This document shows, in pieces, positions 25,823 through 54,847 of a DNA stretch of 64,000 nt; the first letter of the stretch is position 1, and each line of letters begins with the position of its first letter. Position numbers and translations under genes: made by a program. This stretch comes from Nyssa sinensis (taxonomy: Eukaryota > Streptophyta > Magnoliopsida > Cornales > Nyssaceae). Location: contig CM018052.1 in assembly GCA_008638375.1 (NCBI GenBank), forward strand, positions 33,992,226 to 34,056,225, given 5' to 3'. Under the pieces are notes generated by a model. It was not told the DNA's origin. It saw only the letters and a list, made by a program, of their open reading frames with translations, and did not search any database.

Positions 25823-28800
25823 TTAATTATTATCAAAAGAAAGGGAAAAAAAAAAAAATATGGCAGTTAATTGCTTGGCTGCAATCCATGCAAGTCCCCC
25901 AATCAATCCATTGAACCAATGCCCCAAGCCTTTCTATAGCATTGAAGCAACAAATAATAACATATAAATAAAACTAATGGTCAAGGAAAACTAATTGGCA
26001 TGCTTACCACTTTGTCCAGATGTAGCTGCAGGAAGGGCAGGAATTTTGACAGCTGCAGTTCCCAAACAGATATAAATCAGTAAGGACATTAAATAAAACT
26101 GGAAGAGACCAAAAAAGAATTAGGATGACCACATATAATGAATAAAAGTAATGTGTTTACATACTTTTATTGCATGACGAAGCTGGTAATTGAGAACCAG
26201 AGGGCCAAGGAGCGGGAATGTTATCGTTCAAATCACAAACGAAGCTGACCCCCGAAGAATTATCAAATGTTGCATCTGAAGGCAAGCTAGGCAAAAGGCA
26301 ACCAGACTCTATTCCAGAAACAAATGGAGGCAAGTACAAGCTATCAAATATGGCAAGACATGCAAAAGATAAAGGAGGAATACTTTTTTTTTTTATAAGT
26401 AACACTGATCAAATTTTTAACAGCTCACTAACACTAATCAAGTTTATAAACAAAAGACACTAAACCAAAAATTCCATCTCCCCCGCCCAAACCTTTTTCT
26501 CTATTACTACTCATTTGGTTTTTCACTTAAAAGAAGCAGAGGAAATAATGAGAAAAGAAGATACCATTCTGTTAGTTCTTTAATTAAGGAAGAGTGGAGA
26601 TGAAGGGAAGGATGGGGCTCACCAAATCTCTTTTGCAAAAGACTTCTAAATTGTGCCGAAATGTTGCCCTTTTCTCCAAATCAACTCAAATAGATTCACC
26701 TTTGAGATAACATTTTCACTCAGCCCAGATCAATTTGTTTCCTCCTCAAACCAATCCACTTCCTTCTCTCTCCACTTTAGACAAAACAAGTGACAACTGG
26801 GTGATTTCAAATAATTGCTTCTCTTTTCCCTCACCAAATTTCCATTTAAAAAGAAATAGATGAGAAAAGGACATCCAATACATTGAATTATGCACATCAA
26901 GGGTAGTCTATGGTCTGTGTTAGGAATAAATTTGCTACATCTCTAGCACTGATATCAGCTCCAGGAAATTAAACATGGTTCCAGAATACAAAAGTAGGAC
27001 AAAGAGAAACAAAATTCTAAATACTCAATTTACCTTGAGCTCCAACTGGTGTGTATCAAATTGTAGATTCCCATATCAAATCAAAACAGCAAAATAAAAA
27101 ATAAATCATGTATTAGTATCAGCTTTGACTTGACTTGTAGAAAGGCTTTTTGTAAGGGGCACTATGAAACAAAACAAACCTTGGAGAGAAAAATCCTTGA
27201 GGCTAATACGACAGAGTTTATAAACATTTTTGGTAACGTTTACTTTCTGTAGTTTCATTCCAAGTGATGCAGCACAATCCAGAGCTTGCAAGTTGGTTAT
27301 GAAGCTCTGCTTCTGCAAGTGAGACACATAGCTATCCATTGCATTACAACATGCTGTCTGGTTGCTTATCCCATCACCACAGCCCTTGGTGACATGGCTC
27401 ATGTTGGGGAAAAGAAGAGGGCAAACTGAAACACATATGAAAAGAGATTAGGAAGTTAAAAACAAAAAGGAGAAAATGAATGACGCCAGCTGAATGGGAT
27501 TGGCACTTTTGCGTGAAATCAAGGGTACAGAAATAAAGCAAACATAAACATCACACCAAAGCAAATAATAAAAAAATTGATATCCTTCTCAGAAGGTTCA
27601 TTAAGTATCAATAAATAGATCAGGTGGACTCTACCAATGCCATTGTTAAATATGTAGAGCTCATGCATAGAGGTGATGAACAACAGAAGACAGATACACA
27701 CATGCATATCCCTGACATAAATGTAGGCAAAATCAAGCTATCATGAATACTTGCTAAGTATTCTTCTGCAAGTTATTACATTCTTTTTTAACCATCCTCC
27801 ACCCCCTGGAAAAAAAGAGGAAAAGATCTGCACTCGCAAGTTTCGGTTGCTTTTGCTATATGATATATTTTATTCTAGGAAATTTCACTAACAAATCCTT
27901 GAAGAATGATTGAGGATCCTTCAAATACCAACAGCAAAGGGTCTCATCATTCACAGAACTTGAACAAATCCAAATTACCAATCTAGTCTCAATTACAACA
28001 GACTAATCTAGAAGTTATCTTACTCCCAGCTCACCTTTGTTGACATTGCAATTAGATAGTCCTCTAAGAACTTCCTTTGCATGAGAAGGATCGAGTTTAC
28101 TTGCCAGCCACCGAAGTACAATACTTTTACAATCATTAACCCTAGATGAGTGGTCCGACAATGCATGGGATCCGTCAATGCTCAAAAGATCATAGGCTTT
28201 TAATGCAAGATTTGTAGCAGCTTCTGATATAGAATTCTGACAAATTTGTTTACAACATTCATTCACAGGATCAATCTTTTCACAGGCAACAAGAAGCTTA
28301 GAAGTATCCACAGTGCTCTCAAACTCGTTAATATATTTAACTGGGCAAGAACCTTCAGTGAGGTTAGATGGACGGATTGAGCATATCTGCTGTAGATTAT
28401 CACTGGCACCCTGACCCACCAGAATTTGCTCAAAATCTGAGAGGCAATGCTTTGCAAGGGTCCCATTTAGAGCAAGAATATTGGTGTCTTTACTGGATTG
28501 ACCAATGAGAATGACTAGAGTGGCTTCTAACTGTGGGCAACATATTACATTAGCTAGAAATGGTGCAAACACAGACAAACAATCAATTGAAGTCATCCTC
28601 ATTATGCTTTCAACAGCATCAAAGTTTAACATACAGAGTCCTGCAAGGAAGGTAAAAAAAAAAGGAAAGCAATCAAGGTTAAATATGATTTCACTTCTCA
28701 GCCAAATGGCTCTAAGAAGTTGAAGTGATAAGATATGTGAAACAAACCTGACAATTTTGGGACAGTGTTATTTGTAAAGGGTGTCAACGGTGAGGGTGCA

Positions 28801-29143: not shown

Positions 29144-32100
29144 CAAAGAGAGAGAGAGAGAGAATGAGTTCTGTATACAGTAGTATGTTACTGAACGCCA
29201 AAACTATTTAAGCTAGGGAAACATATATTCCACTCAAAGGAAAGTATTGCACATCGATTAAGAAACTTTAAACTGGTCACTTTTTTATTGCACATCGATT
29301 AAGAAACTTTAAACTGGTCACTTTTTTTGGGGGGTCATCTGAGTTTTAACCTGTAGACCATTTTTGCACCAATGCAAAGGGTGGGAAACGGAAGGCATTG
29401 TTGAGGCAATTTTTCTAAAATCTGAGAAATCAATCCTAGAATTTGATGGTTTTCTAGGTAAGTTCAATTCCCAAAACCACCTATAATGAACGTTGTTTAT
29501 AAAACTGAATGCTATATGTGGGGTCATTGAGTTTGACACTGATCATAGCAAAGGAGTCAAATCTGCAACAACAAAATAATAATAAAGGGTAGAGTAATTA
29601 GAATAATTAGCACTCGGGGTAGTTTAGTCTTTTTGTTCTTTTGTTTAACCCTTCCATAAAAGGTGGTTTTATTCTTATGTATAATTAGTTTTTCAGTAAA
29701 GCAAACAATGGCTCCAAATGTTTAAATTGCTTGAGAATGTACCAACAATGTATATCAACTATCAAGCTCTCAACACTCCCCCCCCCCCCAACGTGTGACC
29801 CTGGGCTCGCACATAGAGTGACAAAGAAACCACGGACAAATGTGAAGTAGAACAAAGTGCAAATGTAAACAAGGAATAAATGAAAACATAAACTCAAGAC
29901 CTCTCGTAATGAATGTTCTGACATTATGATAAATTTGAGTAATAAATCAAGAAAAAGAAGCGAGAAGAGAATTCTTATTACTGCAAATCTGCCTCAGAAA
30001 AACTAATTATACATAAGAATATAGAAGGTTTACCAATATTACCTGAAACGCGGATCGTTATGGTACATGGAACGGGAAAAGGAATATCATGTGTTATAGA
30101 ATGTGGTATGTCAGGGCCATGGAATAAAATTTCGCAATATTTCACGATATCAATTGATATATCGCAATTTTTGTAATTGGACGATATTTGAATGCGAAAA
30201 AAATTCATAAAATATTGCAATACATCGCACAATATCTTATAATATCACAAAGAAAATTTTTCAATTTTTAAATTTGAAAATTCTCATAATATCACTTCCA
30301 TATCGCGATATATTGCAAAATATCACATTATATCGCGTATATCGCACTTTTAACTCTAATATAATTGGAACTTAATGTTTTACATTATTAATATAAAAGA
30401 CTATGTATATTTAAATTTTATTTGATATGTATACATATTTGACCCTTATTTATGTTAATGTAATTAAATTTTATATAAATTATAATGATTAGTGTTCTTT
30501 ATATTCTCGTCAGCGTGTACTTATTCTTTGATTTCATACCATATACTTATCAAATATATGTTTATTTACAATATATTGACTTAGAATGATACATTAGCAT
30601 GTCAATTAATAATTCAAAAAATTTCATTCAAAATTTTCATGATTTAATATAAATATCCATCATTTAAAAAAAAAAAAAATTGCAATATCGATATGTAATT
30701 GTGATATATCCATTGATATATCTGTATTTTTGAACATGCGATATATCCTTTTTATCCATGTCTTATTCCTTAGTTAAGGGTAGGTTTTTTCGTATCGCTT
30801 TGTTAGAACCAATTTGGAACTTGATTTTATTTATAATAATATTTATATACACACAAACACAAAGCTAAAAAATTCCAACGAATCCAAGTAATGTAGGATA
30901 GAAATGGTACCCTAAAAATATGAATATATGTTTTAGAATTATTGTATGATTCTTTAGTTTTTTAAATTTGAATCTATCTTAAATTGGTGGTTTTAGATAA
31001 AATATCTATTATCTTTATTGTTTTCTATTCAAAATAGGATTCTTTAATCTATTAGGATTATGAAAAGGATAAGAGTTGTGATTTTTTAGTCAAAATAGTA
31101 GTATTCTAGCTTTATAAATATGATGCAAGAAACTTCTATTCTACAGTTTTTATCAATAATAATATAATTTCGAATTTTAGAGAATTTATTCTCTTTTTTA
31201 GTTGATTGCTTTGTTGGGTTGATTGTTACACGTTGTGGATATTGACATTGGTCGCATCCATCCTTTCACGTTTCTGTTTTGCGTCACCAAATTATTATAA
31301 AATAAAAATCCCAACGATGTATGTGTGCATTTTCTTGTTTGAGTTTATCTCAAATTGATGATTTTAGATAAAAATATCTATTATATTTATTATTTTCTAT
31401 TCAAAATAGGATTCTTTATTCTGTTAGAATTATGATAAGGATAGGAGTTGTAAATTTATAGTCAAAATAGTAGTATTTTAGTTTTATAAATATGATGAAG
31501 GAGACTTCTATTATGCAGTGTTTATCAATAATAATATAATTTTGAATTTTAAAAAATTTATTCTTTTTTTGAGTTGATTGCTTCCCATTGGGTTGATTGT
31601 TCCCTGTTGTGGATATTAACGTTGGTCATATCCATTCTTTCATGTTTCTATTCTGCGTCACCAAGCCATTATAAAATAAAATTTTCAACGATGTATGTGT
31701 ACATTTTCTTGTTTATTATATGATTTTTTTGGGACTCATATATTTTAGATTAGAACGCTAAATCTTGCGTTCCAAATCACTAATGATTCACTTTTTAGAT
31801 CGTGTGATCCAATTTACAATTTGTTAGGAGGAGTGAATTGCGGTACCTATGGATTAAACAAAAGAACAAAAAGATTAAACTAACCTTAATGCTAATAATT
31901 CTAATTACTCTGACAATAATAATAATAATGACGACCTCTCCTTTACAAAAAGATTTGAATTGAGGGAGTTGGAAGAAATAGAAAGGAAAGAAAAACGAAG
32001 GAAAGTTAATATAATGTTTGTTTTAAACGTGAGAATGAAAAGGATTGGGCAAACGCCCCCCATTTTGCTTTCCTCTAAAAATGGAGGAAATGGAGGAAAG

Positions 32101-36176: not shown

Positions 36177-38125
36177 ATTTACCATAAACCATAAGTTTTA
36201 TGGACCATTTCCAATTACAGCACAGTAGAAGTGCACAGTAATCGATTTAGCACTAATGAAATATCACTAGACAGGCCAAGTAAGCTCAAGGGAAATAATG
36301 TTGTTTTTCAGGGCCAAACTTGGGCTGAAAAAGTTAGGTCCAATATCAAGTGGGTGGGGCCCAACATTTAGTATGATTATAACTTCACAGTGCTGGCCCG
36401 ACCAACAACAAGTTGTTTGTACGAAAACAGCGAGTTTAAATTCCTCACCGCCCAATTAAAAACTTATGAATATGAACTTTTTTATTTATTTTTATGATGA
36501 AGATGAGAGTGGGCCCGTCCAAATATCCTATGTCTATTCGTACATTGATGGATCGAAGAAATGAACCAGTGGCTCACGACACTCGTGAGCCCAAATGCTC
36601 ACTTTGTGTCCCTTTCCTGGAAAAGGTAAACCAGCCTAGAAGGTGTCGACCCTCATCCATCAAATTCAATACCCTCCCTTTTCTGTCTTGGCCACAGTCA
36701 ACTTGTGCCACTCTGGCCCATCTATCACCTTGCTTTAAAAGCAAGTTGATTTTTTTTAAAAGGGTAATGTTACATTGTTTAAAATTTTAACTAAAATGAC
36801 TACAGATGTTCAATTTAGTGGTACAAGTATTTATTCTTTATGTAATTATTTATACAAAAAAAAAAAATCTAAAAAGTATTACTTAAAAATGTAATAGTAT
36901 TTTGTGACTAAGGTCTCATCCGAGATGGTAAAATTTTCTCGTTCTTCAGAGATGACTCAAGTTTGAGATGCATGCACACGTGCATACCTAGATAAAATTT
37001 TTTTCTCTCTCATTGTTGTACTAAAAAAAGGAGGGGTAGATCACACTGACCAGTCCTGAGGTTTTTAAAAATTACAGTAACTTCTCTTGAGATTTTGAAA
37101 TTATATTGAATTCTTTTATTTTACCTGAAAAATTATAAATACTTTCTATAATTAGAGTTTTATTTCAAAATGACAAAATTGTTTCTTTCATTTTTTTTCT
37201 TCCATTTTTTCAATTTTGACCAATTTTTTTCATATTCAAATAAATATTGATTAACACTTTAAACTTATTTGTATATAATATGAAAATAAGTTATTTATTT
37301 TTATATAAAATAAAAATTATTTAAAACAAAGTTCTAAAAATTGATCAAAATTCAAAAAGAAATGTAAAAAGAAATATAAAATAGGCAATTTTGTCATTTA
37401 GGCAAAAAATTTAATTGAAAAAATATTTATAATTTGTTAAAAAAAATAAAGAGATCAATATAATTATTAGAATCCTTGTTATAAATAAGTGTAATTTGCT
37501 GTAAAAAAAATGTAATAACATTTTAGTGTTAAGAATCAGATGAAATGAGTGATGGATAGTTAATGAAAGTTTGTTACAATCATTTGGATACAATATTTTG
37601 AACTCAAATTTTAAAGCAATATAGCATTACTTTCCTAAAGTCTAATCTGTGTGGTCTGGAACAACTCCCCCCTCATTTGTCTATGTTTCCTTTATTCCGT
37701 ATTCACCCACTTCTTGAATTCAGCAAGACTTTATCTACTACTGGATTTGTTAACATTTTTTTTTGGAACTAATCTCTTTCTCAAAATTTTGTAATTTGTT
37801 ATTTTATTTTTCTATATATTGAAATTAAATCTCTTGTTAATGGCTCTAATTCACTACAACCAAATCAAAAGTAAAAATATAACAACTTATTTTCAATAAT
37901 TCAACATGTCCTCTTATTTATCACCCATTCCATGTAAACTATGCATTTTTTTTAAAGTACAACAATAGAATAGGAAGAAATTTTATCTAATTGTATGTGT
38001 ATGCGTTTAGTCTCAAATAAACGTGTGGGAAGACGGAGAGTAAATAAGTGGAAGTTTAATATATAAGTTGTAAAGTAACTTGATTTATGCTTAATTCATT
38101 AGCCCTTAAGTGAAATTATATATAT
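33900..38125. other. AT-rich intergenic spacer
   Basis: No gene is recognised. It includes AT microsatellites (about 34279-34305 and 36146-36160, the latter followed by GA repeats) and a run of more than 20 A at 35581-35604. A less AT-rich block at 36250-36750 has no family features. A perfect hairpin lies at 36571-36591. Confidence 0.5.
36571..36591. repeat. Perfect 9-bp inverted repeat with 3-base loop
   Basis: The left arm GGCTCACGA pairs exactly with the right arm TCGTGAGCC across CAC. It could be a dimeric factor site or chance. Confidence 0.5.
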
Positions 38126-38130
38126 ATATT

Positions 38131-38594
38131 TGATATACCATAAAGTGACAAACATATTTAAAGCATGACACGTGTTTGTATAAAGCTCTTCAGGATACAG
38201 ATCAAGAAAGATTATTTTATCTAGATCAACCAAGCACGGAGGGTTCAGAGGTATATGGTTTAAAACATAGCACCACATTCTATATCCTACTGATCTCAGA
38301 ATAAGAAAATAGAGTTCAATATGGTAACTACTATCTTCGGATATCTTCAAATTCTTACTTCTATGGCTCTTAATCCTACTCAACTTAGGATGTCTACGAC
38401 CTATAAATAAGGTCATAACGTATGCTTTTAATTTGTATTCAATTCATCTTTTAAATTACAATCTTTTTTTATTTACTGACTTTATCATCGGAGCAGCTAC
38501 CATCGGAGCCTTCCCAGTGACCCTCTAATATCAAGTTCTTAACAGGTAGCGAAAGGCGGGAGTTCATTTTGATAAAAAAAAAGAAGAAACATCA
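38131..38594 (+). repeat. Tat 5' LTR, 464 bp
   Basis: It runs from TGATATACCATAAAG to GAAACATCA. It contains a TATA box (CCTATAAATAAGG, about 38400). It is about 92 percent like the 3' LTR over the first 113 bases by eye. Confidence 0.85.
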
Positions 38595-40920: not shown

Positions 40921-41329
40921 GAGCAGTTACTTCAATCCTTCATCAATGCTTGAAATACGAGCACAATAACAAAGTTTTCACCATCAAGGGTAGTCAGCCC
41001 ACTGCCTGGGAATGTCATGTCATTGCACTAAAAGAAAAGCCCTCCAAATAGCAATTACAGTACCCTCATGAAAGGGAAAGTTTTTCGTCTTTCAACCTTC
41101 ATGAGGTAGAAGAATGTCCTTCCCAAACTAACGAGCCGTTAAGTCCTAGAGGATGGGACAGCGCAGTCAAACCAATGGAGGAGCCCATCAAAGTGCTCAT
41201 CGACACTGAAAGAAAAGGAAAATACGTAAAAATTAGCTCAGCCCTGTCTTCTTCCTAGCAAAAAGATATTGTTAAATTCCTAAAAGATAACCTTTTGGTA
41301 TTTTCTTGAAAAACTAGAGATATGGAGGG

Positions 41330-42352
41330 AATAGATCCTGGTTTCATCTCTCACAAGCTGATGATAGATCCAAACCATCCCCCAGTAAGACAAAAAAGGT
41401 GAACATTTGCCCCTAAATGTCACAAAATCATCAATAAAGAGGTCTAGAGGTTGGTAAATGCTGGAATGATAAGAAAGGTGTTCTACTCAGAATGACTTGC
41501 TAATACAATTCTTGCAAAAAAGAAGAACGACAAGTGGAGGGTTTGCGTTGACTATATTGACTTTAATAAAGCTCGTCCTAAAGACAACTTTCCTCTTTCC
41601 AAGATTGATCAACTTGTTGATGCTACAGCAGGTCACAAACTTATGAGTTCAATGGATGCTTACTCTGGATACAATCAAATTCAAATGTATCCTCTAGACC
41701 AAGAGAAAACAACCTTCATATCAGAACTTGGTCTCTATTGTTATAGAGTGATGTCGTTTGGCTTGAAGAACGTTGGAGTTACGTACCAGAGGCTTGTAAA
41801 CAAAATGTTTGGCCCCCATATTAGAGAAACAATAAAAGTCTACATCGACGATATGTTTGTCAAAAGTGTTCATAAGGGTAACTACATCCAACACTTGAGC
41901 TAAATGTTTAACATCCTGAAGAAACAAAACATGAAACTTAACCCATTAAAATGTACCTTGGGGATCACAGAAGGAAAATTCTTGGGTTTTTAGTCTCTCA
42001 AAGAGGAATTAAGGCAAATCCCTTACAGATTAAAGCTCTAATTAAACTAGAATCACCTAAAACCAAGAAAGATATCCAACAGCTAAATGGAAGGATATCA
42101 GCACTGAATAGGTTTATCTCTAAATCTACGGATTAGTGCCTCCCGTTCTTCAAAGCCTTGAGGGGGATTAAGGCCCTAGAAGGGATCTCTAAATGTGAAG
42201 AAGCCTTCCAACAACTCAAGCAATACCTAGCTTCCGCTGAACTACTTTTAAAATTAGTGTCAGGGGAAAAAATTCTCATGTACTTAGCTGTGACAGAAAG
42301 TGGCATCAGCTCTATGTTAGTTGAGGAAGAAAAAGCCTTGTGTCCGTTATAG
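41330..42352 (+). pseudogene. Tat reverse transcriptase and truncated RNase H
   Basis: RT motifs in order: KWRVCVDYIDFNKARPKD (about 41530), SSMDAYSGYNQIQMYPLDQE (41644), FGLKNVGVTYQRLVNKMF, and YIDDMFVKSV (about 41841) with both catalytic Asp present. A frame change occurs near 41990, then SQRGIKANPLQIKAL follows. RNase H starts at about 42158 (KCEEAFQQLK, LYLAVTES-like) and stops in the middle of the domain at 42352, where the tandem repeats begin. Integrase is missing. Confidence 0.85.
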
Positions 42353-42800
42353 TGCTACAGGTCTGGTCCATTTCACTTAATGTACAAACCCCTAAAAGTC
42401 TCGTATCCATTACAAGTGCTACAAGTTTGGTCCATTTCACTTAATATACAGACCCCTAACAGCATTATGTCTGTTACAAGTGCTATAGGTCTGATCCATT
42501 TCACTTAATGTATAAACCCCTAAAAGCCTTGTATCCGTTACAAGTGTTACAAGTCTGGTCCATTTTATCAATGTACAGATCTTTCAAAACCTTGTATTCA
42601 TTACGAGTGTTATGGGTCTGGTTCATTTTTCTCATTCTACAAACTTCTAGAAAACCCCTGTTTTATTTACAAGTGTTATAGGTCTGTATATCGTGAATTA
42701 TCAACATGCAGATGTTAGAAAAAACTTATTTATTTATAAGTGTTGTGGTTCTATACATCCTGTTATTTAGACCTTTGAAATGCCTTACGAGTGCTTTGGA
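42335..42800 (+). repeat. Tandem array, period 63-64 bp, about six to seven copies
   Basis: Unit starts are near 42335, 42398, 42462, 42526, 42589 and 42653. Each holds a TTACAAGTGCTA-like block, GGTCTGGTCCATTT, and TGTACAAACCCCTAAAAG. Copies degrade towards the right. The first unit overlaps the last RNase H codons. Tandem repeats between pol and the 3' LTR are known for Tat/Ogre-type elements. Confidence 0.85.
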
Positions 42801-43901
42801 GTCTCTAAAGAACTTATATTTTCTACTGGCTTGGATATTAAAGAAATTATTTTAAAGTTAGACATACCACAAAGATATTGAACAAGACACAAGTTCTAGA
42901 ATGACTGAAATTTCATATATTAGCCCAAAAATAAAAAAATTACAAGATCAATATACATATATATATATATAATACAAAAACAACCCAAATCTACTCTTCA
43001 GCTGGCTCGACAATCTCTGAAGCAATAACTTGAGGGAGTTCTGGATCCACCTCATCTTTTTCGTCATCAACATCCGGCGTATCAATCTTAACTTGGGAGA
43101 CTTCAATATCATTTACTCCAATCAAATCTAAGTTGAGATACTTCTTACAGAGCTTCGCCCTAAAGGTTCAATATCCATGCTCAATCAGTTCGCCACCAAG
43201 ATCCTGGACTTCAGTCTTCAGATCCACTTCAATTTGGGCTCTAACGGCTTCAGCGTTGTCCTGAACCTTCTGGACAGAAGCAGCCTAGAAGTCTGCAAAC
43301 CTTTTTTTTAGGTTTTTCAGTTCGGTAGCGAGGGCATCCCTCTAGGATTCCAAAATGGAGTGGGAATTGGCAGCCCCTTTAAGTTTTTTCTCGACTGCCG
43401 CCACCGAAGATTGCGCAGTTCCCAACTGAAATCTGGCCTCATCGAGCTCAGATTAGAGGGTGTCAATCTGCTCGGGGTTCTCAGGGCAATCCATAATGGC
43501 TGCCAAGTCGTGCATGGCCTGGAAAACATAAACAACGCAATCAAGTCAGAATGAATTACGTGCAAAATACAAAACCAGGAAACTAAAAATAAGAAAAAGT
43601 AATGCAAAACTCACCCTCATATGAAAGGCCATCAGATCCTTGGCTATCCTCTAGAGCTTCAGCCCTGTGAATTTGCTTGGGCCCGTTGCCCAAAAGTCCT
43701 CATAGGCCTTCTTCACGGCTGTCACGCCGGAGTCATCAAACCTTGAGGATGTGGCAACTGATTTTCCCTTCTCCCTTCTCTTCTTTAGAGCAGAAGGTGT
43801 TGGGGGGCAGAAGAGCCTCCTAAATAAGAGAAACCCCCAAATCTTCCAAGACAGTTCTCCCGGAGGAGTTGGAGATTAACCTCATTCTTTTCACTTGAAG
43901 G

Positions 43902-43906
43902 GGAGG
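43902..43906. repeat. Target site duplication GGAGG, left copy
   Basis: GGAGG directly precedes the TGATAACTGG end of the nested element. The same five bases directly follow its other end at 51361-51365. Confidence 0.88.
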
Positions 43907-45111
43907 TGATAACTGGTTAAAAAGTGCATATTTATGTTATTAACCCTGAATATTCTTGCACTTTTATTATTTTAATTTCTCCAACCTATATGCATTTGCT
44001 AGTTAATTCTTATTTTATCTTTTTGCAGAGAAAGCTCGTCAAAGTTGATGATTTGGAGCAAAAAGGAGAATATTGGGCTTTGAAGTGCTAAAAGAAGTGG
44101 AAAACAAGTGAATTTGGGTTAGAAGAGAAGCTTGATCCATATATAGGTGGACTAGGGCCCATTTTAGCACTATAGGCTCTATTTTGGAACACTTTAGACT
44201 CCCTTTTTGGGCCCCTAATGTCTAATTACGGGATTTTATGTTATTCTCTTAAATTATTATTTTGTAAGGGTATTTTTGGAAAAAAGGGGATATTATTGTA
44301 ACCTAGGGTTTTGGAAAAGAGGGAGGCCGTCTTGGAGATCTAGAAAGGAGGAGAAAAAAGAAGGAGACAACTCTGAAGAAGAAGATGAAGAACTCCATGG
44401 CTATGGTGGTCTCCTCTTCCACTATCATGGGCTAAGTTCTCCTATTCCTAGGGTTTAGATGAAACCCTAGTCAAGTAACATTACTTCTTTGTATTTTATT
44501 TTTGGGTTAATTAATTTTAGATGTTGATTGTATAACGTTGAGATTTTATTAAAGCATTGATCGTATTATTCAATTGCATATAATCAATTTCTGTGATTTT
44601 GTTTATGTGGTTATACAATAGTAATATGTGTACATACATCAAAACCGTAGGACGAGTCATAACTCAGGGAAAACAAATTGTGACTATGACCTTAGAATTA
44701 GCGTAGACAATTTGTGTTGACCAAAGATGATTCGTGCTTAGGGTTTTGGTGCGTGATTTTCTTGATGATTGTATTGAGGCTTGTAGCCAAAATACGTCTT
44801 TTACATCCAAATTAAATGACCCAAGAATGAATACAATTGAAGCTAGTTACAAGATTAGTGGTAGATTCAACACCCTAGGAATTCTCTTTTAATTTGATTC
44901 CTCATTAATTCAGTTAAATATTTGCTTTAAGTATAGTTCTCATTTAATTTTAGGAAAGAAAATCAACAACAATCAATCTTTGTTAATTTGAGTTGAAATC
45001 AATCTCAACTTTGGTTTTTAAACAATTAACAGTCTTTGTGGGTTCGACCCTTACTTCTCTACTATACTAGTAGTTTAGTTTGGTAATTTGATTGATTTCT
45101 ACGACAGATCA
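43907..45111 (+). repeat. Left LTR of the Athila-like element, about 1205 bp
   Basis: It begins TGATAACTGGTTAAAAAG and ends ACGACAGATCA, five bases before the PBS. The length suits Athila-type LTRs. The first 318 bp (43907-44224) are the left arm of the inverted repeat. Confidence 0.82.
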
Positions 45112-45116
45112 ATTTT

Positions 45117-45134
45117 TGGCACCGTTGCCGGGGA
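45117..45134 (+). other. Primer-binding site of the Athila-like element
   Basis: TGGCACCGTTGCCGGGGA matches the TGGCGCCGTTGCCGGGGA site of Athila-type elements with one change, and follows the LTR end after five bases. Confidence 0.88.
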
Positions 45135-45402
45135 CTGTTGAATTGTTAAAAAATTAGTAGTTGATTTTTATTTTAATTCTTTATTTATTTATTTATTTAT
45201 TTTTTTTTTTTTTTTGCTATTATTCTTTTTCTTTGTCTTTGGTGTGCAGCAATCATAAAAAGCTAAAGAGAAGCGGAGTCGATTGGAGCAAACGCGGGTT
45301 GATAAAAAAAAAGAAGAAAAATTCTACCTGTTTTGCAATCTATCACGGTGAAATCTTTCCCTTCTCTTTGCATTTTATTTTTGCTACAGTTGGTATATTT
45401 GA

Positions 45403-48400
45403 TTGGATAGGTTTATTTGTTTTATGTTTGGTCGCCGTTCGTGCAACCCAGACTTAGAGAAATTAGACCTTGAGTTGGAAAGAACCTTGAGAGCTTTTCG
45501 TAGTTTGTCCATTAAGTCTGAGGTTTTAGGAAATCCTATTTCTATAGACATGGCTGATAATGGTGGACAACAACAACCACAACCTCTTAAGGCTCATTTT
45601 GTTCCTACAACATATACCAATCCTTCATGTATTCAAATGCCTACTGTAACTGGGCATTATGAAATTAGACCGCAAACTATTCAGATGTTACCATCTTTTT
45701 ATGGGAAATCAAATGAGGACCCATACCAACATCTGAATGAGTTTTTAGAGCTTTGCACCACTGTCAATGTGCAAAATCTGAGTGAGAATGCTCTTAAGTT
45801 AAGGTTGTTCCCTTTTTCATTGAAAGATAGAGCCAAACAATGGCTTGGTTCTTTGCCTACAAATTCCATAACAACTTGGACTCAACTCCAACAAGAGTTT
45901 TTAAAAAAATACTTTCCTATAGGCAAAACCAATGATATGAGAAGAGCCATCACAAATTTTACTCAACTTGATGGCGAGTCTTTTCATGAAGCTTGGGAGA
46001 GATTTTTGGACCTTCATAGGAAGTGTCCCCATCATGATATCATGCGTTGGCAGTTGGTACAGAGTTTTTATGACGGTATCACAGAACAAAACCGTCAAAT
46101 GATTGACTCTGCTTGTGGAGGGACTTTCCTCAACAAGAATCAGGATGAGGCATGGAATCTTTTTGAGACCCTTAGTGAGAATTCACAGCACCATGCCTCA
46201 GCAAGTCGGAGAGCTCCACCCACCTCCTTTAGTGTCCCTAAAAGAGGTGGCATTTATGAAGTTGGACAAGCTGTAGATGTCCAAGAGCAAGTTGCGGCGT
46301 TGTCTAGGAAATTAGACCAAGTTTTAGCTAGGGGACAAGTTTCTACTTCTGCTCCTGCCACTCAAGAGGTGTGTGCTTTATGTTCATGCCCAACTCATTA
46401 TGTGTCAGATTGTCCCTTAGCCCCGCAATATCCAGAGTTTGTGGAAGAGCAAGTTAATGCTCTTCAAGGTTTTTCCAAACCGGGTAATGATCCATATTCT
46501 AACCATTACAACCCGGGATGGAGAAACCATCCAAATTTTTCTTGGAGGCCTCAAGCCTCAAATCCTTCACTCTCACAAAATTCAAGGCCAAACGTGCCTA
46601 ATTCTTTTCCATCATCATCCTACCGTCCTCCTCCTCAACAATATCAACAACCACCTCCTCCCCCTAGAAATTCAGCTTTTGAGGACAAGGTGTTAAGTGT
46701 TTTGCAAGCTTTAGAGTCAAATCATCAGTCTAACACTCAATTGCTCCACTCACACACTCAGTCCATCTCGAAGCTAGAATCCCAAATGGGACAACTAGCC
46801 CAAGCTATGAGTAGAAGAGATGAGGGGCGTTTACCAAGTCAACCGGTGAACAACCCTAAAGGCCAATATGGGGTAGAGACTTCCAACCCCAATGATCAAT
46901 ATCATGAGCAAGCTAAGGCCATAACTACTCTTAGGAGTGGGAGAGTGGTAGATAACAAAGTTGAATATAAGGCGGAGGGTGAATTGATAAGTTCTTCTAA
47001 AAAGGATGATGGTGAGAATACAAATTTGCAGAAAGGGGATTCTTCATCCCCAAGTGATCCTTTGAGTGTTCCTGTAGCATCCTATGTGCCCAAGGCCCCT
47101 TACCCTTCCTGCTTGGCTGACCCTTCTCCTTTTGGGAAAAAGGGTACAAATATGGAGGAAATGCTTGAGATTTTTAAGCAAGTTAATCTTCTTGATGCAG
47201 TCAAGCAAATTCCTTCCTATGCCAAATTCTTGAAAGACCTTTGCACTCAAAAGAGAAAAGCTAAAACTCATGTGTCAAAGAAGGTCTTTCTGACAGAGCA
47301 AGTGAGCTCAATTCTCCAGTACCAAACTGCACCTAAGTTCAAAGATCCTGGAGCCCCCACAATTTCTTGTGTTATAGGTAATCACATTATAGATAGGGCG
47401 CTCCTTGACTTGGGGGCAAGTGTCAATTTGTTGCCATACTCTGTCTACAAGCAATTTGGGTTAGGTGAGTTGAAGCCTACGACGATGTCTTTGCAGTTAG
47501 CTGACAGATCCATCAAGATACCTCGTGGGATCATTGAGGATGTTTTGGTGAAAGTAGACAAATTCTACTTTCCAGTTGATTTCCTAGTTCTAGATATGGA
47601 GCCCGCTCATGACCCTAAGCGTCAGATTCCCGTCATCTTAGGTCGACCCTTCTTAGCTACTGCTAATGCATGTATTAATTGTCGAACTGGAGTGATGGAT
47701 ATTTCTTTTGGGAATATGACTGTGAGGCTCAATGTTTTCAATGCTTCACAACAACCTCCACATGAGGAGGATTGTTTTTTAGTGGATGTGATTAATGAGA
47801 TAGTTGAAGAATCTCTCCCTCAAATCTTGATTGAGGATCCTTTGGAGAGATGTTTGACTTACTTTGATAGTGATGCTTTCGATATTGATGCTTCTATTGA
47901 AGAAGTCAATTCATTACTTGATTGTTCTCCTTCTGTAGACTATCCTCCTTGGAAGTCTAGACCGGAACCCCTACCTAATCTTGCGAGCACCCCTGCTCTT
48001 CCATCTTTAGAGGTTCCTCCAAAGCTTGAGTTGAAGCCACTCTCGGCTACTCTTAAGTATTCATTCTTAGAACCCGATGACACTCTCCCTATTATCATTG
48101 CTTCTAATCTTCCAAGTGAGCAAGAGTGCCGTCTTCTTGAGGTTCCTAGAGAGCACAAGGGTGCTATAGGTTGGTCCCTAGCCGATTTAAAAAGGTTTGA
48201 TCCATCTATTTGTATGCACCATATTCATTTAGAGGAGCTTAGAAATGATGCATATGAGAGTTCCCGCATTTATAAGGCTAGGACTAAGGCATTCCATGAT
48301 TCTCACATTAATCGTAAGTCCTTTGAGCCCGGTCAAAAGGTGTGGTTATTTAACTCTAAGTTACGGTTGTTTCCTGGGAAATTGCGGTCTAGATGGGATG

Positions 48401-48573
48401 GTCCATATGAGGTTGTTCAATCTTGGTCTCATGGTGCGGTAGAAATTCATAACCCTCGGAGTGGCCAAACTTTCAAAGTTAATTGCCAAAGGTTGAAATT
48501 GTTTATTGATGGTATGGAGGAAGGGAGTTTGATTGAGGAGATTGGTCTTGAAGACCCAGTTTATATTGATTGA
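45403..48573 (+). CDS. Fused gag-protease-integrase C-terminus polyprotein, 1056 aa
   Basis: A single uninterrupted frame. The start at MFGRRS (45424) is more like Athila gag than the first Met at 45403; a further Met begins MADNGG at 45550. Gag: PSFYGKSNEDPYQHLNEFLE and RLFPFSLKDRAKQWLGSLPT (about residues 105-155). Zinc knuckle CX2CX4HX4C at residues 324-337. A Pro/Gln-rich linker follows. Aspartic protease at about 655-790 has LLDLGASVNLLP (catalytic Asp 669) and ILGRPFLATA. Then GAIGWSLADLKRFDPSICMH, which normally leads into RT, passes directly into LRNDAYESSRIYKARTKAFH (residue 946 on), normally the integrase C-terminal part, ending at 1056. RT, RNase H and the integrase catalytic core are missing without loss of frame. 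Translation of this fusion is inferred, not shown. Confidence 0.88.
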   Translation: MDRFICFMFGRRSCNPDLEKLDLELERTLRAFRSLSIKSEVLGNPISIDMADNGGQQQPQPLKAHFVPTTYTNPSCIQMPTVTGHYEIRPQTIQMLPSFYGKSNEDPYQHLNEFLELCTTVNVQNLSENALKLRLFPFSLKDRAKQWLGSLPTNSITTWTQLQQEFLKKYFPIGKTNDMRRAITNFTQLDGESFHEAWERFLDLHRKCPHHDIMRWQLVQSFYDGITEQNRQMIDSACGGTFLNKNQDEAWNLFETLSENSQHHASASRRAPPTSFSVPKRGGIYEVGQAVDVQEQVAALSRKLDQVLARGQVSTSAPATQEVCALCSCPTHYVSDCPLAPQYPEFVEEQVNALQGFSKPGNDPYSNHYNPGWRNHPNFSWRPQASNPSLSQNSRPNVPNSFPSSSYRPPPQQYQQPPPPPRNSAFEDKVLSVLQALESNHQSNTQLLHSHTQSISKLESQMGQLAQAMSRRDEGRLPSQPVNNPKGQYGVETSNPNDQYHEQAKAITTLRSGRVVDNKVEYKAEGELISSSKKDDGENTNLQKGDSSSPSDPLSVPVASYVPKAPYPSCLADPSPFGKKGTNMEEMLEIFKQVNLLDAVKQIPSYAKFLKDLCTQKRKAKTHVSKKVFLTEQVSSILQYQTAPKFKDPGAPTISCVIGNHIIDRALLDLGASVNLLPYSVYKQFGLGELKPTTMSLQLADRSIKIPRGIIEDVLVKVDKFYFPVDFLVLDMEPAHDPKRQIPVILGRPFLATANACINCRTGVMDISFGNMTVRLNVFNASQQPPHEEDCFLVDVINEIVEESLPQILIEDPLERCLTYFDSDAFDIDASIEEVNSLLDCSPSVDYPPWKSRPEPLPNLASTPALPSLEVPPKLELKPLSATLKYSFLEPDDTLPIIIASNLPSEQECRLLEVPREHKGAIGWSLADLKRFDPSICMHHIHLEELRNDAYESSRIYKARTKAFHDSHINRKSFEPGQKVWLFNSKLRLFPGKLRSRWDGPYEVVQSWSHGAVEIHNPRSGQTFKVNCQRLKLFIDGMEEGSLIEEIGLEDPVYID

Positions 48574-48845
48574 TGTTTTTCTCCTCGTGCTGTGTCTGGC
48601 TGAAGACATTAAACTTAGCTCTTCTTTTGGGAGGAAACCCAATTTTATTTTATTTTAGTTTAGTTTAGTTTAGTTTATTTTATTTTATTTTATTTTATTT
48701 TATTTTATTTTATTTTATTTTAATTGAGTTTTCTTTTTATTGTTTTGTAGGTGTTTATTATTTATTTTATTCTTATTGTTTTAAAAAAAAAAAAAAAAAA
48801 ACAAAAGAGGGGTCTCTCTTTAGTCATGTTTGTTTTCTGGACTAA
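48574..48845 (+). other. Post-ORF region with T-rich pentamer repeats
   Basis: After the TGA come about 80 bases of TTTTA- and TTTAG-type repeats (48640-48721) and an A-run at 48782-48800. No coding signal is seen. Confidence 0.7.
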
Positions 48846-49086
48846 AAAGCTCGAACAATTTCAGAAAGCTCGAGCATTTTCTCATGTTTTTTTTTCCAAA
48901 TGTTTCTGGTCCAGAAAGCTCGAGCACTCGCCAAAAAGCTTGAGCACTTTTTCATCAAAAATTGGTTAAATATTCTGCCCCGCAAAGCTCGAGCACTCTA
49001 AGAAAAGCTCGAGCTCTTTTTCTTCCCTCAAAGCTCTTAAGGTGCTGTCCCAAAAAGCTTGAGCTTTTCTCAGAAAGCTCGAGCAC
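48846..49086 (+). repeat. Array of nine AAAGCTCGAGCAC-like motifs
   Basis: Motif starts are at 48846, 48865, 48915, 48935, 48984, 49004, 49030, 49054 and 49074. Spacing is irregular (19-50 bp). Four copies contain the full AAAGCTCGAGCA; the others differ by one to a few bases or share only the left half. The core GCTCGAGC is palindromic. The spacers are T-rich and unrelated, so this is not a simple head-to-tail tandem repeat. A shorter AAAGCTCG also occurs in both LTR arms (about 44032, and inverted at about 51230). Confidence 0.85.
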
Positions 49087-49109
49087 TTTTAATTCAGTTC
49101 AAAAAAAAA

Positions 49110-49452
49110 AAAAATTATTTATTTATTTATTTATTTTTATTTATTTATTTTTATTTTTATTTTTGTTTTTATTTTTATTTTTATTTTTATTTTTATTTTT
49201 ATTTTTATTTTTATTTTTATTTTTTATTTTTTATTTTTTATTTTTATTTTTATTTTTATTTTTATTTTTATTTTTATTTTTTATTTATTTTTTATTTTTT
49301 ATTTTTTATTTATTTTTTATTTTTATTTTTATTTTTATTTTTATTTTTATTTTTATTTTTATTTTTATTTTTATTTTTTTTATTATTATTATTATTTATT
49401 ATTTTTTTATTTTTTATTATTATTATTTTTTATTTTATTTATTTATTTTTTT
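49110..49452 (+). repeat. (ATTTTT)n low-complexity tract
   Basis: About 340 bases of ATTTT, ATTTTT and ATT units. They create long open frames of Phe, Leu, Tyr and Ile that are not genes. Confidence 0.95.
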
Positions 49453-51042
49453 TGTGCATCGGAATGGCTTACGAGGATTGCAAAAATTTGTATAGAAAGC
49501 CGTTCCAAATACACTTCATTCTATTATGGCTTTGGTTCAGTTATTTCTCAGCCTACATGTGCACTTATTGGCATATTGATTCTCTTTTCCCAATTTGTTT
49601 TGTTATGCCAATATTTAAATTCTATGACCTTAATGATTTTTATTAGTCAATTTGTTATTGTAGGGATCCATGGGTTACCCAAAAGCTTCAAAAGGCCGTG
49701 CAATTGAAGTTTTTTCCCCTCTTGAACTAGGTGCACTCCTTCTCTTTACTTCTTTTTGTTCTATTTCATGTTGTTTGCTGTCATGTCCCCTTGAGGACAA
49801 GGTGTCAAATAAGTTGGGGGGAGTTGCTATTATTTTGCCTACTTGAGCTCAATATACTTCATGATTACAATTTTTTTGTTTTGAGCGTATTCATGTATTT
49901 CTGAGCTTGCATGAGAATCATTGTGATAGTTGTGCACTGTTAGTGATTTGTTTTTCCCTAACTTTCATAATTGGAGACAAATTGGGTTGCTACTCTTGTG
50001 ACTCTATGATTTGATGGTTAGACTGTGAGACTCTAGTATCATGATGGCATTTACTGAGACTTATAACCCATATTATGTAGAATTGAGCTTGAACTTTATT
50101 TTGAGGGTTATACAGTTTGCATATCTCCATTCTATCAATTGTCATTGTCACATGTCTAAGGTCAGTCAGTTCAGATGTCGGATGATACTTCTTGCCTTTG
50201 GGGAATGAAACTAGGCTCTTTTTCTACTTTGAGCCTGTTCGTTTGTTTCCTGCATCTTTACATTATTTACCTGATTGGAACCAAGTTGAGCCTTTATTAT
50301 TATATCTTTCTTTTCATAGCCAGTAGCCTCGCTTTGGGTGAAGAAGTTGGATGATTTTTCTTTGAGAAATTGGTGTTGGGAAAGTAGAGAAGTGAAGATG
50401 TACATTTTTCTTTTATTGTAATTTTATTCAGTATCAAAAAAAAAAAAAAAAAAAGAGACAAAAGAGAAAAAAAAAGAACAATCAAAAAAAAAAAAAGAAA
50501 AAAGAAAAAAAAATATATATTTCATTGCCTTTTCCTTTTCTTTTTGGTTTGCTCAAGTAGAAAAGTTGTGAGTAGTTTGGGAATGCTTTTATTGGAATTT
50601 TGGGAGTGGTGTTGCAATGTTCAAAAGAGATGATGAATTTGGAAAACTCCAGTTTATTCACTTCAGCTTCTTTGCTTATCACATGGAGATTATTGTTCAC
50701 TTACCCCTACATTATCTTTGACCCTGACCTAAGTTACAGCCAAAAACAAAGACCTAGCCGACCCCGAAGGTGTAGTAGTTGATGATTGAGGATGCGACTG
50801 TAGTGATCATGTGGCATTGGGAGTTGATTTTCGTAGTGGTTAGAATTCTCTCTATATTATTCTTGTTGTGCTTTCATTCATGTTTGCATGTGGATCACTT
50901 GATTTGTACTCAACAATTATTCTATCCACATGTATGAGAGGATACATATGCACCCCATCTCTGTGAGCTTCATTTGTGAGTGATATCTTTTGGTGAGATT
51001 TGGAGTCAAAGTAATGCCTGTTTGAAACGAAGTTTCATTGCC
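49453..51042 (+). other. 3' untranslated region of the Athila-like element
   Basis: Non-coding, with a purine run GTTGGGGGGAG (49813-49823) that looks like a polypurine tract after CTTGAGGACAAGGTGTCAAA, plus A-rich tracts at 50435-50515. It resembles the long region between pol and 3' LTR of Athila-type elements. It stops abruptly at 51042, where the inverted LTR segment begins. No second polypurine tract is visible next to that junction. Confidence 0.6.
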
Positions 51043-51360
51043 TAGACATTAGGGGCCCAAAAAGGGAGTCTAAAGTGTTCCAAAATAGAGCCTATAGTGC
51101 TAAAATGGGCCCTAGTCCACCTATATATGGATCAAGCTTCTCTTCTAACCCAAATTCACTTGTTTTCCACTTCTTTTAGCACTTCAAAGCCCAATATTCT
51201 CCTTTTTGCTCCAAATCATCAACTTTGACGAGCTTTCTCTGCAAAAAGATAAAACAAGAATTAACTAGCAAATGCATATAGATTGGAGAAATTAAAATAA
51301 TAAAAATGCAAGAATATCTAGAGTTAACACAATAAATATGCACTTTTTAACCAGTTATCA
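51043..51360 (-). repeat. Inverted 318-bp LTR segment (right arm)
   Basis: The reverse complement matches 43907-44224 over its whole length. About 200 bases on the inner side are identical, while about ten differences fall in the outer 115 bases. It ends CCAGTTATCA, directly followed by the target duplication. Confidence 0.9.
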
Positions 51361-51365
51361 GGAGG
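51361..51365. repeat. Target site duplication GGAGG, right copy
   Basis: Directly follows the GTTATCA end of the nested element and is identical to 43902-43906. Confidence 0.88.
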
Positions 51366-52832
51366 CTCGGCAAGGGAAGAAATTTTCCCAAATTTCTTCT
51401 TCTTCCCTAGCACCCATCCAGTCACTAGGGATTTCTTCAAACTCTCGGTCCGATCTCGCACCAAACTAGCATCCATCAAGTTTTTAGGGAAAAAGATGGC
51501 TTTGTGAGAGCGGTTGTTGGTCTAAAAGAGCCTCTTGTACTTTTATTGAAGATCGACGGTAAAGATCGATCTCTTCCAAGCTCTCTTATCTGCACAGAGG
51601 CACAGGATTAGGCTAAAAAAGGAAAAAAAATGTGAAAACCCAAAATGAAAAAAGTGCAAAACAAAAAAGGGAGTTCACCTTTAATGCCAGTCTTTTATGG
51701 GAAGGTTGAAACTTGACTGTCGAAGTCCTCGAACTCCCATCCTCTTTATACGAAGAAGTACCACTTCTTTCAAGTCTTGTTGGAAGTGGGTACAAAGGAG
51801 AGAGGTCTGAACCCTTGGTCGAAAAACATATAAAACATGCCCTCCGACTTTAGGTATTTCAAGTCCATGTTACTCCTAATCAAGGAGAGGTCTACCTCAA
51901 CATTGTTCAAGTATCCTAAAACTATGAACCCAAGTAAAGGTCTCAAACTGTTTATTTTCAAGTCAGCGGGGCAGATATTAAACCAATTAAAAATTTTCCT
52001 TATAAGAGGGTGGAAGGGTAACATAACCCCTATCTCAAACCACTTAAGGTAAGCACATATTTCACTTTGTTAAATACTGGCGAAGTGATCTAATAGTCTT
52101 TGTACCTTACAGGACACATTTGTAGGGAGATCAAAAGCAACCCTCAGAGCATCTATCATGCTTTAAGTCATGGTGCTTTCTCTTTCCTCCCTTTTGTAAG
52201 ATGTACCTAAGGACTCCCCACCGATGTTCGTAGGCTCTATGAAAGCCTCTATTATCCTGACTTCAGAATTAGGGGTTGGGTCACCGACAATCCTATTTTC
52301 TACATTTTTTTATGGGCTAGAAGGTTGACCTCTATCTGGTTGTGTATTCCCAAAGACTCTTTTGTTTCATGACCGGTGCTTGACTGAGCATCGGAGGCCG
52401 ACATGATAAGAAAATGAAGAAGAAAGGTAAAAGATGCAAAGAACTTTAAATGAGAATGTATTTGGAATTGAACTTGACTGCAGATGTGATCGGAGTTGAT
52501 TTTCTTAGGACGCCAGAATTTGCCTCACTAAAAGTTCTCTCTAGTAGTGTTATGCTTCTTAAAACGCTGAAATGTTAAAAGGAGGGGCGTCTATGTGTTT
52601 TCCCCCCTTTTTATGAAAATCTAACAAGTGTCACGTAGGAGGTCCTCGCTTTCGAACTGCTGTGATAGTTAGAGAAATGATGACCTCGTAATTCCAACTG
52701 ACAGCTGATGCAATGAATGTCGTATCAACGGCTGTCTCTTCGAAATACAAAGTGATGCATTTATAACTACTATGCGTGTAATGCCTCAGAAGCCCTAACC
52801 TCAGTGCTGATCAAGCCCCAAAATAGAGGCTC

Positions 52833-52854: not shown

Positions 52855-53158
52855 TGATATACCATAAAGTGACAAACATATTCAAAGCATGATACGTGTC
52901 TGTACAGAGTTCTTCAGGATACAGATCAAGAAAGATTATTTTATCTAGATCAATCAAGCATAGAAGGTACGCTTTCAATTTATGTTCAATTCATCTTTTA
53001 AATTACAATCTTTTTTTATTTATTGACTTTTGACTTTATCATTAGAGCGGTTACCATCGGAGCCTTCCCGGTGACTCTCTGATCTCAAGGTTTTGATAGG
53101 TAGCGAAAGACGGGAGACATTTTTTTATAAAAAAGAAGCAACATCAACATCAATATCA
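52855..53158 (+). repeat. Tat 3' LTR with internal 172-bp deletion
   Basis: It starts TGATATACCATAAAG and runs parallel to the 5' LTR to about GAAGG (52968), then jumps to TACGCTTTCAATTT. The missing part contains the TATA box. The end has ACATCA, ACATCA, ATATCA where the 5' LTR has a single ACATCA. Confidence 0.82.
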
Positions 53159-54132: not shown

Positions 54133-54747
54133 TTAACCATCGAACCCGGTTTGACTCCACACTGCATCCCGAACCCGGCTCAAGTCTCGACCCTTGAGCG
54201 TCCGGCCCACACCTTCAAAAACCGAGTTGGCGGCCATATGATAGCTCCGCGCGTACTCACGCGCCAAGTACTCGTGCGGTGGAACCATCTCGGAGTCCGG
54301 ATCGTCGGGGCAGTCATCCGAGTCATGTAACGACTCAACCGAGTCGACTCGATAAATTTTCGACCAATCGGGCACGTTTAGTGGGGCCGATGTGGCCATG
54401 TGGCGTTGTCGTGGAGGTGCCACGCTGTCCTTGCCGCGAAACTGGTGCACAATCCTTGTAGTCGCCGTTTTGCTGGAATCGTCGAACGCCAGCGATAGCC
54501 CGCCCACGTAGGAGTGGTCTCGGGGATCACTCCGGCGGCTGCTTCCTTTACTCCCCGGAGTATCGCGTGGGGACCACTCGCCATTCGTTGAGTGATCGTC
54601 CACGTTGACCATGTCATCTACCATCGACCACACATCTCCTTCGCCGAGCTCCGATAAGTCGGAAACCGTCCCTTGGCCTTGACCGTAACCATAGCTCCCC
54701 AACAAGCGGTCGCTGCCACTCGTCGCCAGTTTCCGACCCTTCGCCAT
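54133..54747 (-). CDS. S40 senescence-regulator family protein (DUF584), 204 aa
   Basis: Intronless, ATG at 54747 and TAA at 54133-54135. The N-terminus MAKGRKLATSGSDRLLGSYG and the ELGEGDVWSMVDD block match the S40/Senescence_reg family. The C-terminus carries the family end EGVGRTLKGRDLSRVRDAVW. The middle is Ser/Asp-rich with WSPRDTPGSK and a PLNVPDWSKIYRVDS block, also typical. The length is within the family range. Members are mostly nuclear and have been linked to leaf senescence and stress responses, but their biochemical activity is not established. The gene is clearly GC-richer than its surroundings. I see no break. The subtype (S40-4 to S40-7 like) is not assigned. Confidence 0.94.
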   Translation of the reverse strand: MAKGRKLATSGSDRLLGSYGYGQGQGTVSDLSELGEGDVWSMVDDMVNVDDHSTNGEWSPRDTPGSKGSSRRSDPRDHSYVGGLSLAFDDSSKTATTRIVHQFRGKDSVAPPRQRHMATSAPLNVPDWSKIYRVDSVESLHDSDDCPDDPDSEMVPPHEYLAREYARSYHMAANSVFEGVGRTLKGRDLSRVRDAVWSQTGFDG

Positions 54748-54847
54748 ATGTCATCACCACAATCTCCGGCCACCCAACTCCTGAAAGTAACTATTGCTCC
54801 ATTAGAACCAGCTCTTAACATAGACTGGACTTTGAAGCCTCGACTTG

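What the first reader, a model, noticed from the sequence alone, without database searches (positions are those of the whole stretch)
43902..51365. Retrotransposon integrated with inverted, rather than direct, LTR ends
The left end is a complete Athila-type LTR, but the right end is a 318-bp reverse complement of the first 318 bp of that LTR. Both outer ends are the same U3 terminus (TGATAAC / GTTATCA), and GGAGG flanks the unit on both sides. The exact duplication argues that integrase inserted this molecule as it stands, using two U3 ends instead of one U3 and one U5 end. Direct LTRs are the rule for this class. A self-primed or template-switched reverse-transcription product is one explanation. 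If related copies share the structure, it would be a replicating family with foldback-like ends.
Basis: partly seen in the sequence, partly recalled or inferred. Interest (0 to 1): 0.85.

Follow-up and report, generated by a model that had tools for sequence, protein, structure and literature searches.

The report
One-off retrotransposon insertion with inverted ends
In a plant genome, one copy of a jumping element that normally has two same-facing ends was inserted with its two ends facing each other, most likely through a single copying accident, which suggests that the insertion enzyme can use the same kind of end twice.

Summary
A 318-bp inverted copy of the LTR start closes the right end (97%, no gaps), flush with an exact 5-bp GGAGG duplication. 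The unit sits inside an older Retand-like element; a relative of that element in the same genome is uninterrupted there. So this was one integrase-type insertion of a molecule with two U3 ends. The unit is a non-autonomous Athila-type element (gag-protease frame open; RT, RNase H and integrase core deleted). Among 88 listed LTR starts of its family, 19 pairs face the same way and only this one faces inward; 9 of 10 direct pairs checked have 5-bp duplications. The inverted junction has one hit in the 1.0-Gb assembly: a one-off, not a family. Three siblings show 7-bp microhomology at the junction and the 375-376 bp, PPT included, that were lost. The left arm is a mosaic of two U3 haplotypes, the right arm is one haplotype, and both share a variant found nowhere else in the assembly. 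Best reading: template switching at microhomology in a particle holding two different RNAs, copying onto a U3 strand and running off at its exact end. The two-U3 insertion is firm; the molecular step is inferred.

The parts
43902..43906 (.). left target-site duplication GGAGG
43907..45111 (+). complete left LTR, 1205 bp, TGAT...ATCA
   Evidence: the end agrees with siblings' ACGACAGATCA just before their duplications
43907..44012 (+). U3 tract (LTR 1-106) of X haplotype in the left arm (1-29 are the same in both haplotypes)
   Evidence: 9 of 9 diagnostic columns X; 0/77 differences from L037, L038, L040, L041 at 30-106
44039..44224 (+). U3 tract (LTR 133-318) of R haplotype in the left arm
   Evidence: 9 of 9 diagnostic columns, 133-223, are R
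44170..44170 (+). private variant C at LTR 264, left arm
44140..44145 (+). TATA-like motif in left U3 (LTR 234)
45117..45134 (+). primer-binding-site-like TGGCACCGTTGCCGGGGA
   Evidence: naming it an Athila-type PBS is recalled
45424..48573 (+). open gag-protease reading frame fused in frame to the integrase C-terminal tail; RT, RNase H and integrase core absent
48229..48240 (+). in-frame pol deletion junction at a short LE/LEE identity
   Evidence: same junction in sibling L064, 99.8% over 501 bp
48574..51042 (+). 3' non-coding internal region, truncated before the PPT
51043..51049 (.). 7-bp microhomology TAGACAT shared by sibling internal sequence and reverse-complement LTR 312-318
51043..51360 (-). 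inverted U3 arm (LTR 318 to 1), R haplotype at 18 of 18 diagnostic columns
51097..51097 (-). private variant C at LTR 264, right arm
51122..51127 (-). TATA-like motif in the right arm, facing inward
51361..51365 (.). right target-site duplication GGAGG
38131..38594 (+). 5' LTR of the host Retand-like element
52855..53146 (+). 3' LTR of the host Retand-like element, internally deleted
42986..43906 (-). C-terminal, coiled-coil-like part of the host element's antisense frame
51361..52404 (-). N-terminal part of the host element's antisense frame, weak Transposase_28 match

Best explanation
A non-autonomous Athila-type element was reverse-transcribed by enzymes supplied in trans, in a particle that held two different family RNAs (U3 haplotypes X and R). 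A growing plus strand that had reached TAGACAT, 375-376 bp short of the 3' LTR, paired with ATGTCTA at positions 312-318 of a U3 strand of R haplotype. It copied that strand backwards and ran off at its PPT-defined end. This made a linear molecule with a U3 end on both sides. Integrase joined both U3 ends to one target 5 bp apart, inside an old Retand-like element; the TGAT shared here by U3 and U5 ends may be why it accepted them. Shown: one insertion, two U3 termini, microhomology, the mosaic left U3, the shared private variant, one copy in the readable assembly. Inferred: co-packaging, which strand was nascent, run-off on strong-stop DNA, why integrase accepted the ends.
For: Exact flush 5-bp duplication and a relative, L067, in which the two flanks are contiguous: 94 columns across the joined flanks in one frame, 45.7%, E 1.6e-17. 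Siblings L004, L005, L007 run through TAGACAT and on for 375-376 bp to TAAGTTGGGGGGTG and the LTR. At 18 X/R columns the left arm is X at 9 of 9, then R at 9 of 9; the right arm is R at 18 of 18. C at LTR 264 is in both arms and in 0 of 32 other aligned LTRs; its 30-mer has 2 hits in the assembly, both arms. RT, RNase H and integrase core missing. Junction: one hit.
Against: A later gene conversion could have made the X tract in the left arm, so two RNAs are not proven. Microhomology also fits end joining. No reads were seen. The left LTR from 319 to 1205 differs at 32 to 73 of about 880 bases from each of the 32 LTRs compared, and its source was not found. Some genome stretches are withheld as N (L063), so uniqueness holds for the readable assembly only.
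Confidence: 0.6

Rival explanations
1. Single-RNA snap-back: the strand switched onto its own U3 (self-priming), giving identical arms; later a gene conversion from an X-type copy overwrote part of positions 1-132 of the left LTR.
For: Both arms share the private C264 and are identical at 107-318, 0 of 212; the 7-bp microhomology exists within one molecule.
Against: Needs an extra event; the X tract has a single switch point between 106 and 133 and no return to R before the LTR end (1-29 are uninformative), as one template switch would give.
Confidence: 0.22
2. End joining: two incomplete cDNAs, or the free distal ends of two cDNAs whose U3 ends had been co-integrated at one target, were joined by microhomology-mediated repair.
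For: 7-bp microhomology; the right arm ends at a non-terminal LTR position.
Against: Both arms share a variant seen nowhere else in the assembly, which points to one template molecule or one particle rather than two unrelated cDNAs.
Confidence: 0.13
3. Post-insertion rearrangement: two opposite insertions, or a larger inverted dimer, trimmed by deletion.
For: Deletions in nested plant elements are common (recalled).
Against: Two sites would share a flush 5-mer only by a chance of about 0.002, and the host frame is continuous across the joined flanks. A trimmed inverted dimer that was itself inserted by two U3 ends is not excluded.
Confidence: 0.03
4. Assembly artefact.
For: Repeat-rich region; no reads seen.
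Against: A false join would not be expected to give a flush 5-bp duplication and a private variant in both arms.
Confidence: 0.02

Closest known systems
Non-autonomous Athila elements (PMC2410132: abstract and sections 5 and 7 read)
   Same: Gag frame kept, pol lost, families still multiplying, recombination between families
   Different: Described there with paired LTRs; this copy has one LTR and an inverted U3 fragment
Template-switching complexes of Triticeae (PMC1950507: whole text read)
   Same: Abnormal template switch between co-packaged RNAs, one insertion, 5-bp duplication
   Different: Those have three LTRs in a chimeric tandem; here the switch reversed strand sense and made two U3 ends
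DIRS-1 (PMC5633606: passages read)
   Same: Inverted terminal LTRs, transcription from both
   Different: Tyrosine recombinase and a replicating inverted design; here an integrase-type 5-bp duplication and a single copy
Locust Gypsy-25 (PMC8786324: passages read)
   Different: The passages give no junction, duplication or mechanism, and I could not check the claim; it may be loose wording
Autointegration products (PMC2644782: two passages read)
   Same: Aberrant use of cDNA ends
   Different: Reactive CA ends attack internal DNA and give deletion or inversion circles; here both joined points are internal

Membership tests
Athila lineage (Ty3/gypsy) | gag and protease related to Athila-type polyproteins | tested here: met
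   PF03732 E 3.6e-21, PF13650 E 2e-5; 90% identity over 90% of the query to an 1841-aa polyprotein with gag, protease, RT and integrase domains. The label Athila is recalled from PBS and layout; no tool named it
Athila lineage (Ty3/gypsy) | RT, RNase H, integrase encoded | tested here: not met
   In-frame deletion of about 790 residues relative to P0001 (numbering); so non-autonomous
Athila lineage (Ty3/gypsy) | direct LTRs | tested here: not met
   Not in this copy; siblings have them: 19 same-direction pairs, 10 checked, 9 with 5-bp duplications
Athila lineage (Ty3/gypsy) | 5-bp target duplication | tested here: met
   GGAGG
Athila lineage (Ty3/gypsy) | env-like frame (not in all Athila elements) | not tested
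   After 48573 one search lists three frames of 183-204 aa, running through the low-complexity array; none was searched
DIRS-like (tyrosine recombinase) | tyrosine recombinase frame | tested here: not met
   Pfam shows gag and protease, and weak integrase-tail matches, in the only long frame
Foldback or TIR DNA transposon | replicating family with inverted ends | tested here: not met
   One hit of the junction pattern
Retand (host element) | antisense frame with Transposase_28 between pol and 3' LTR | tested here: inconclusive
   PF04195 E 1.7e-4, 22.2 bits, under the 26.2 cut-off; layout as in the passages of PMC11963269

The most novel reading that the evidence does not exclude
Two-U3 insertions made by strand-reversing template switches in heterozygous particles are a recurrent but overlooked class in plant genomes, missed because LTR finders demand direct repeats. 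Their two inward-facing U3 promoters would make double-stranded RNA over the gag frame, so some may act as natural silencing triggers of their own family.
Probability: 0.2. Interest if true: 0.7.

Novelty: new variant of a known kind. Interest (0 to 1): 0.5.

Why it matters
It is a natural record of an integrase-type insertion with two U3 ends, with both source haplotypes still traceable in the same genome. It suggests that U3 and U5 ends can be interchangeable for a plant Ty3/gypsy integrase. It also gives a recognisable signature (facing U3 ends with a 5-bp duplication) that could be counted across genomes to measure how often reverse transcription reverses strand sense.

Tried and rejected
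Autointegration rejected: both joined points (51042 and LTR 318) are internal, not a terminal CA. The GGAGG beside 43907 looked like the polypurine tract of an upstream element; rejected because the three siblings read have TAAGTTGGGGGGTG there and the left flank belongs to the host Retand-like element. Random mutation as the cause of the 9 arm differences rejected: they cluster (200,000 permutations, 2e-5 and 5e-5) and match haplotypes.

Led nowhere: viral contigs and genome-contig scans (no relatives); protein searches with the two host-frame pieces (at E up to 0.001, at E up to 10: no hits). Never answered: a census of all U3 starts in the genome; a search for the source of LTR 319-1205; the pol-deletion pattern; a search for empty sites by the left flank (the relative L067 came instead from sequence next to L002); a fetch of more of the C4 sibling. 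One search failed because that fetch had not come.

Literature: ten counted searches; one search was rejected for a bad term and not counted. In the titles and abstract starts that they listed I saw no integrated plant LTR element with two U3 ends; one locust paper speaks of inverted LTRs. The library lacks most subscription journals, so this is weak evidence of novelty.

Rows dropped and limits: one search left out 4 of 36 other LTRs (L029, L035, L036, L039) because the exact 20-base start was absent; one search used 4 X and 7 R LTRs and only columns unanimous within each; L027 was misaligned. In one search, of 6 loci compared 3 held internal 3' sequence (L004, L005, L007); L002 and L008 are left LTRs and L006 showed no internal match. 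Duplications were checked in 10 of 19 direct pairs. The host LTR count of 45 in 298 comes from an alignment that ran slightly beyond the LTR ends. In one search the joined flanks also matched L067 in other frames, the longest 300 columns at 32.7%, E 3.6e-36; the window's frame shifts between pieces, so the frame claim rests on the 94-column match.

Full report
What is there. The unit 43907-51360 begins with a complete 1205-bp LTR (43907-45111, TGAT...ATCA) and ends with a 318-bp reverse complement of the first 318 bp of that LTR (51043-51360; 97.2%, no gaps). GGAGG flanks it flush on both sides.

What it inserted into. The flanks belong to an older LTR element: LTRs 38131-38594 and 52855-53146 (45 of 298 aligned bases differ, in an alignment that ran slightly past the LTR ends), an RT relic at about 41109-42247, 64-bp tandem repeats at 42331-42686, and an antisense frame with a weak Transposase_28 match (E 1.7e-4, under the cut-off). 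That layout is the one described for Retand elements (PMC11963269, passages). The insert splits the antisense frame. A relative without the insert lies at C20:14836500-14840450 of the same genome (L067): left flank 43163-43905 and right flank 51435-52285 match it in order, 54% and 62%, with 64 bases between the two matches, where the window has 70 if one GGAGG is counted. The antisense peptide read across the joined flanks matches L067 over 94 columns, 45.7%, E 1.6e-17, with the insertion point inside the match. This shows one insertion with a 5-bp duplication. Two unrelated opposite insertions plus a deletion would need a chance 5-mer match (about 0.002) and a deletion that leaves the host frame continuous.

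What the unit is. The 1056-residue open frame holds gag and protease and then the tail of integrase. Against a full-length relative, P0001 (1841 aa, 90% identity over 90% of the query), about 790 residues (RT, RNase H, integrase core) are missing in frame, joined at a short LE/LEE identity. A sibling at C4 has the same deletion junction (L064, 99.8% over 501 bp), so the deletion is shared with at least one other copy and not part of the odd event. Non-autonomous Athila families that keep gag are known in Arabidopsis (PMC2410132, abstract and sections 5 and 7). The Athila label for this unit is recalled from its PBS and layout.

How the siblings look. The first 318 bp of the LTR gave 41 matches, 40 of 1243 candidates having been scored. 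Of 88 LTR starts listed pairs lie within 25 kb: 19 in the same direction, 1 facing, which is this unit. Of 10 same-direction pairs whose outer ends I read, 9 have an exact 5-bp duplication and one (C20:14840451/14847961) does not. So the family ordinarily inserts with direct LTRs and 5-bp duplications.

One-off or family. The 26-base junction pattern has exactly one hit in the 1.0-Gb assembly with up to 3 mismatches, and none for the reversed control. This is one event, within the readable assembly. It argues against a replicating family with this structure. Whether the same process made other insertions with other junctions was not settled: the census did not complete.

The junction. Siblings L004, L005 and L007 follow the unit's internal sequence through TAGACAT (51043-51049) and then continue 375-376 bp, ending in TAAGTTGGGGGGTG, to the 3' LTR. 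TAGACAT is also the reverse complement of LTR 312-318. The two parts therefore meet at 7 bp of shared sequence, as expected for a template switch or microhomology-mediated joining. Neither joined point is a terminal CA, so autointegration does not explain it.

The two arms. The 9 differences lie at LTR 30-106 only, far more clustered than chance. They are haplotypes that exist elsewhere: an exact 29-base match to the left type occurs at 7 places, this one included, while 19 of the first 26 other LTRs compared have the same nine diagnostic bases as the right arm (L027 was misaligned there). At 18 columns that separate haplotypes X (4 LTRs) and R (7 LTRs), the left arm is X at 9 of 9 (30-106) and R at 9 of 9 (133-223); the right arm is R at all 18. 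Both arms carry C at LTR 264; 32 of 32 other aligned LTRs have T, and a 30-mer with that C has two hits in the assembly, the two arms. Apart from that shared base, neither arm shows a change of its own against haplotypes X and R, which suggests a young insertion.

Reading. The shared private base ties the two arms to one template; the X tract in the left arm brings in a second source. A particle with two different RNAs and repeated template switching accounts for both in one cycle, and recombination between co-packaged RNAs is described or proposed for plant LTR elements (PMC1950507, whole text; PMC5668417, abstract). A plus strand that reached TAGACAT, paired with the matching bases of a U3 strand and ran off at its PPT-defined end would give the exact second U3 terminus. 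The U3 end (TGATAAC) and the U5 end read inward (TGATCTG) share TGAT here, which may be why integrase accepted two U3 ends; this is inference. RT and integrase must have come in trans. A single-RNA snap-back followed by gene conversion is the main rival.

What it may do now. Each arm keeps a TATA-like motif at LTR 234 and both face inward, so sense and antisense transcription through gag is possible; no RNA data were seen. Without a 3' LTR in direct orientation and without a PPT it should not be able to complete ordinary reverse transcription; this follows from established knowledge and was not tested.

Noticed in passing
window 49118-49453: A (TTTATT)n-like array of over 300 bp inside the inner element's 3' non-coding region, with an A-rich tract at 50436-50513.
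   Followed up: no
window 48850-49095: Several repeats of a motif like AAGCTCGAGC in the inner element's 3' non-coding region.
   Followed up: no
window 37099-37465: Imperfect palindrome of about 367 bp, 71% self-complementary.
   Followed up: no
window 30967-31714: Two head-to-tail copies of about 375 bp, 86% alike.
   Followed up: no
window 16461-17524: Ty3/gypsy RT relic found by tblastn with Athila-type polyproteins.
   Followed up: no
window 23610-24122: Copia-type RT fragment, PF07727.
   Followed up: no
window 6460-7092, 28018-28767, 54136-54750: Likely plant gene frames on the minus strand: MatE, SPARK and senescence regulator domains.
   Followed up: no
LTR positions 14-59 (43920-43965): U3 hairpin whose loop holds six of the nine arm differences; both haplotypes fold alike.
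   Followed up: partly
G000:C20:14840451 and 14847961: A direct LTR pair 7510 bp apart whose outer 5-mers do not match (TTCGG, AGAAC), so possibly rearranged.
   Followed up: no
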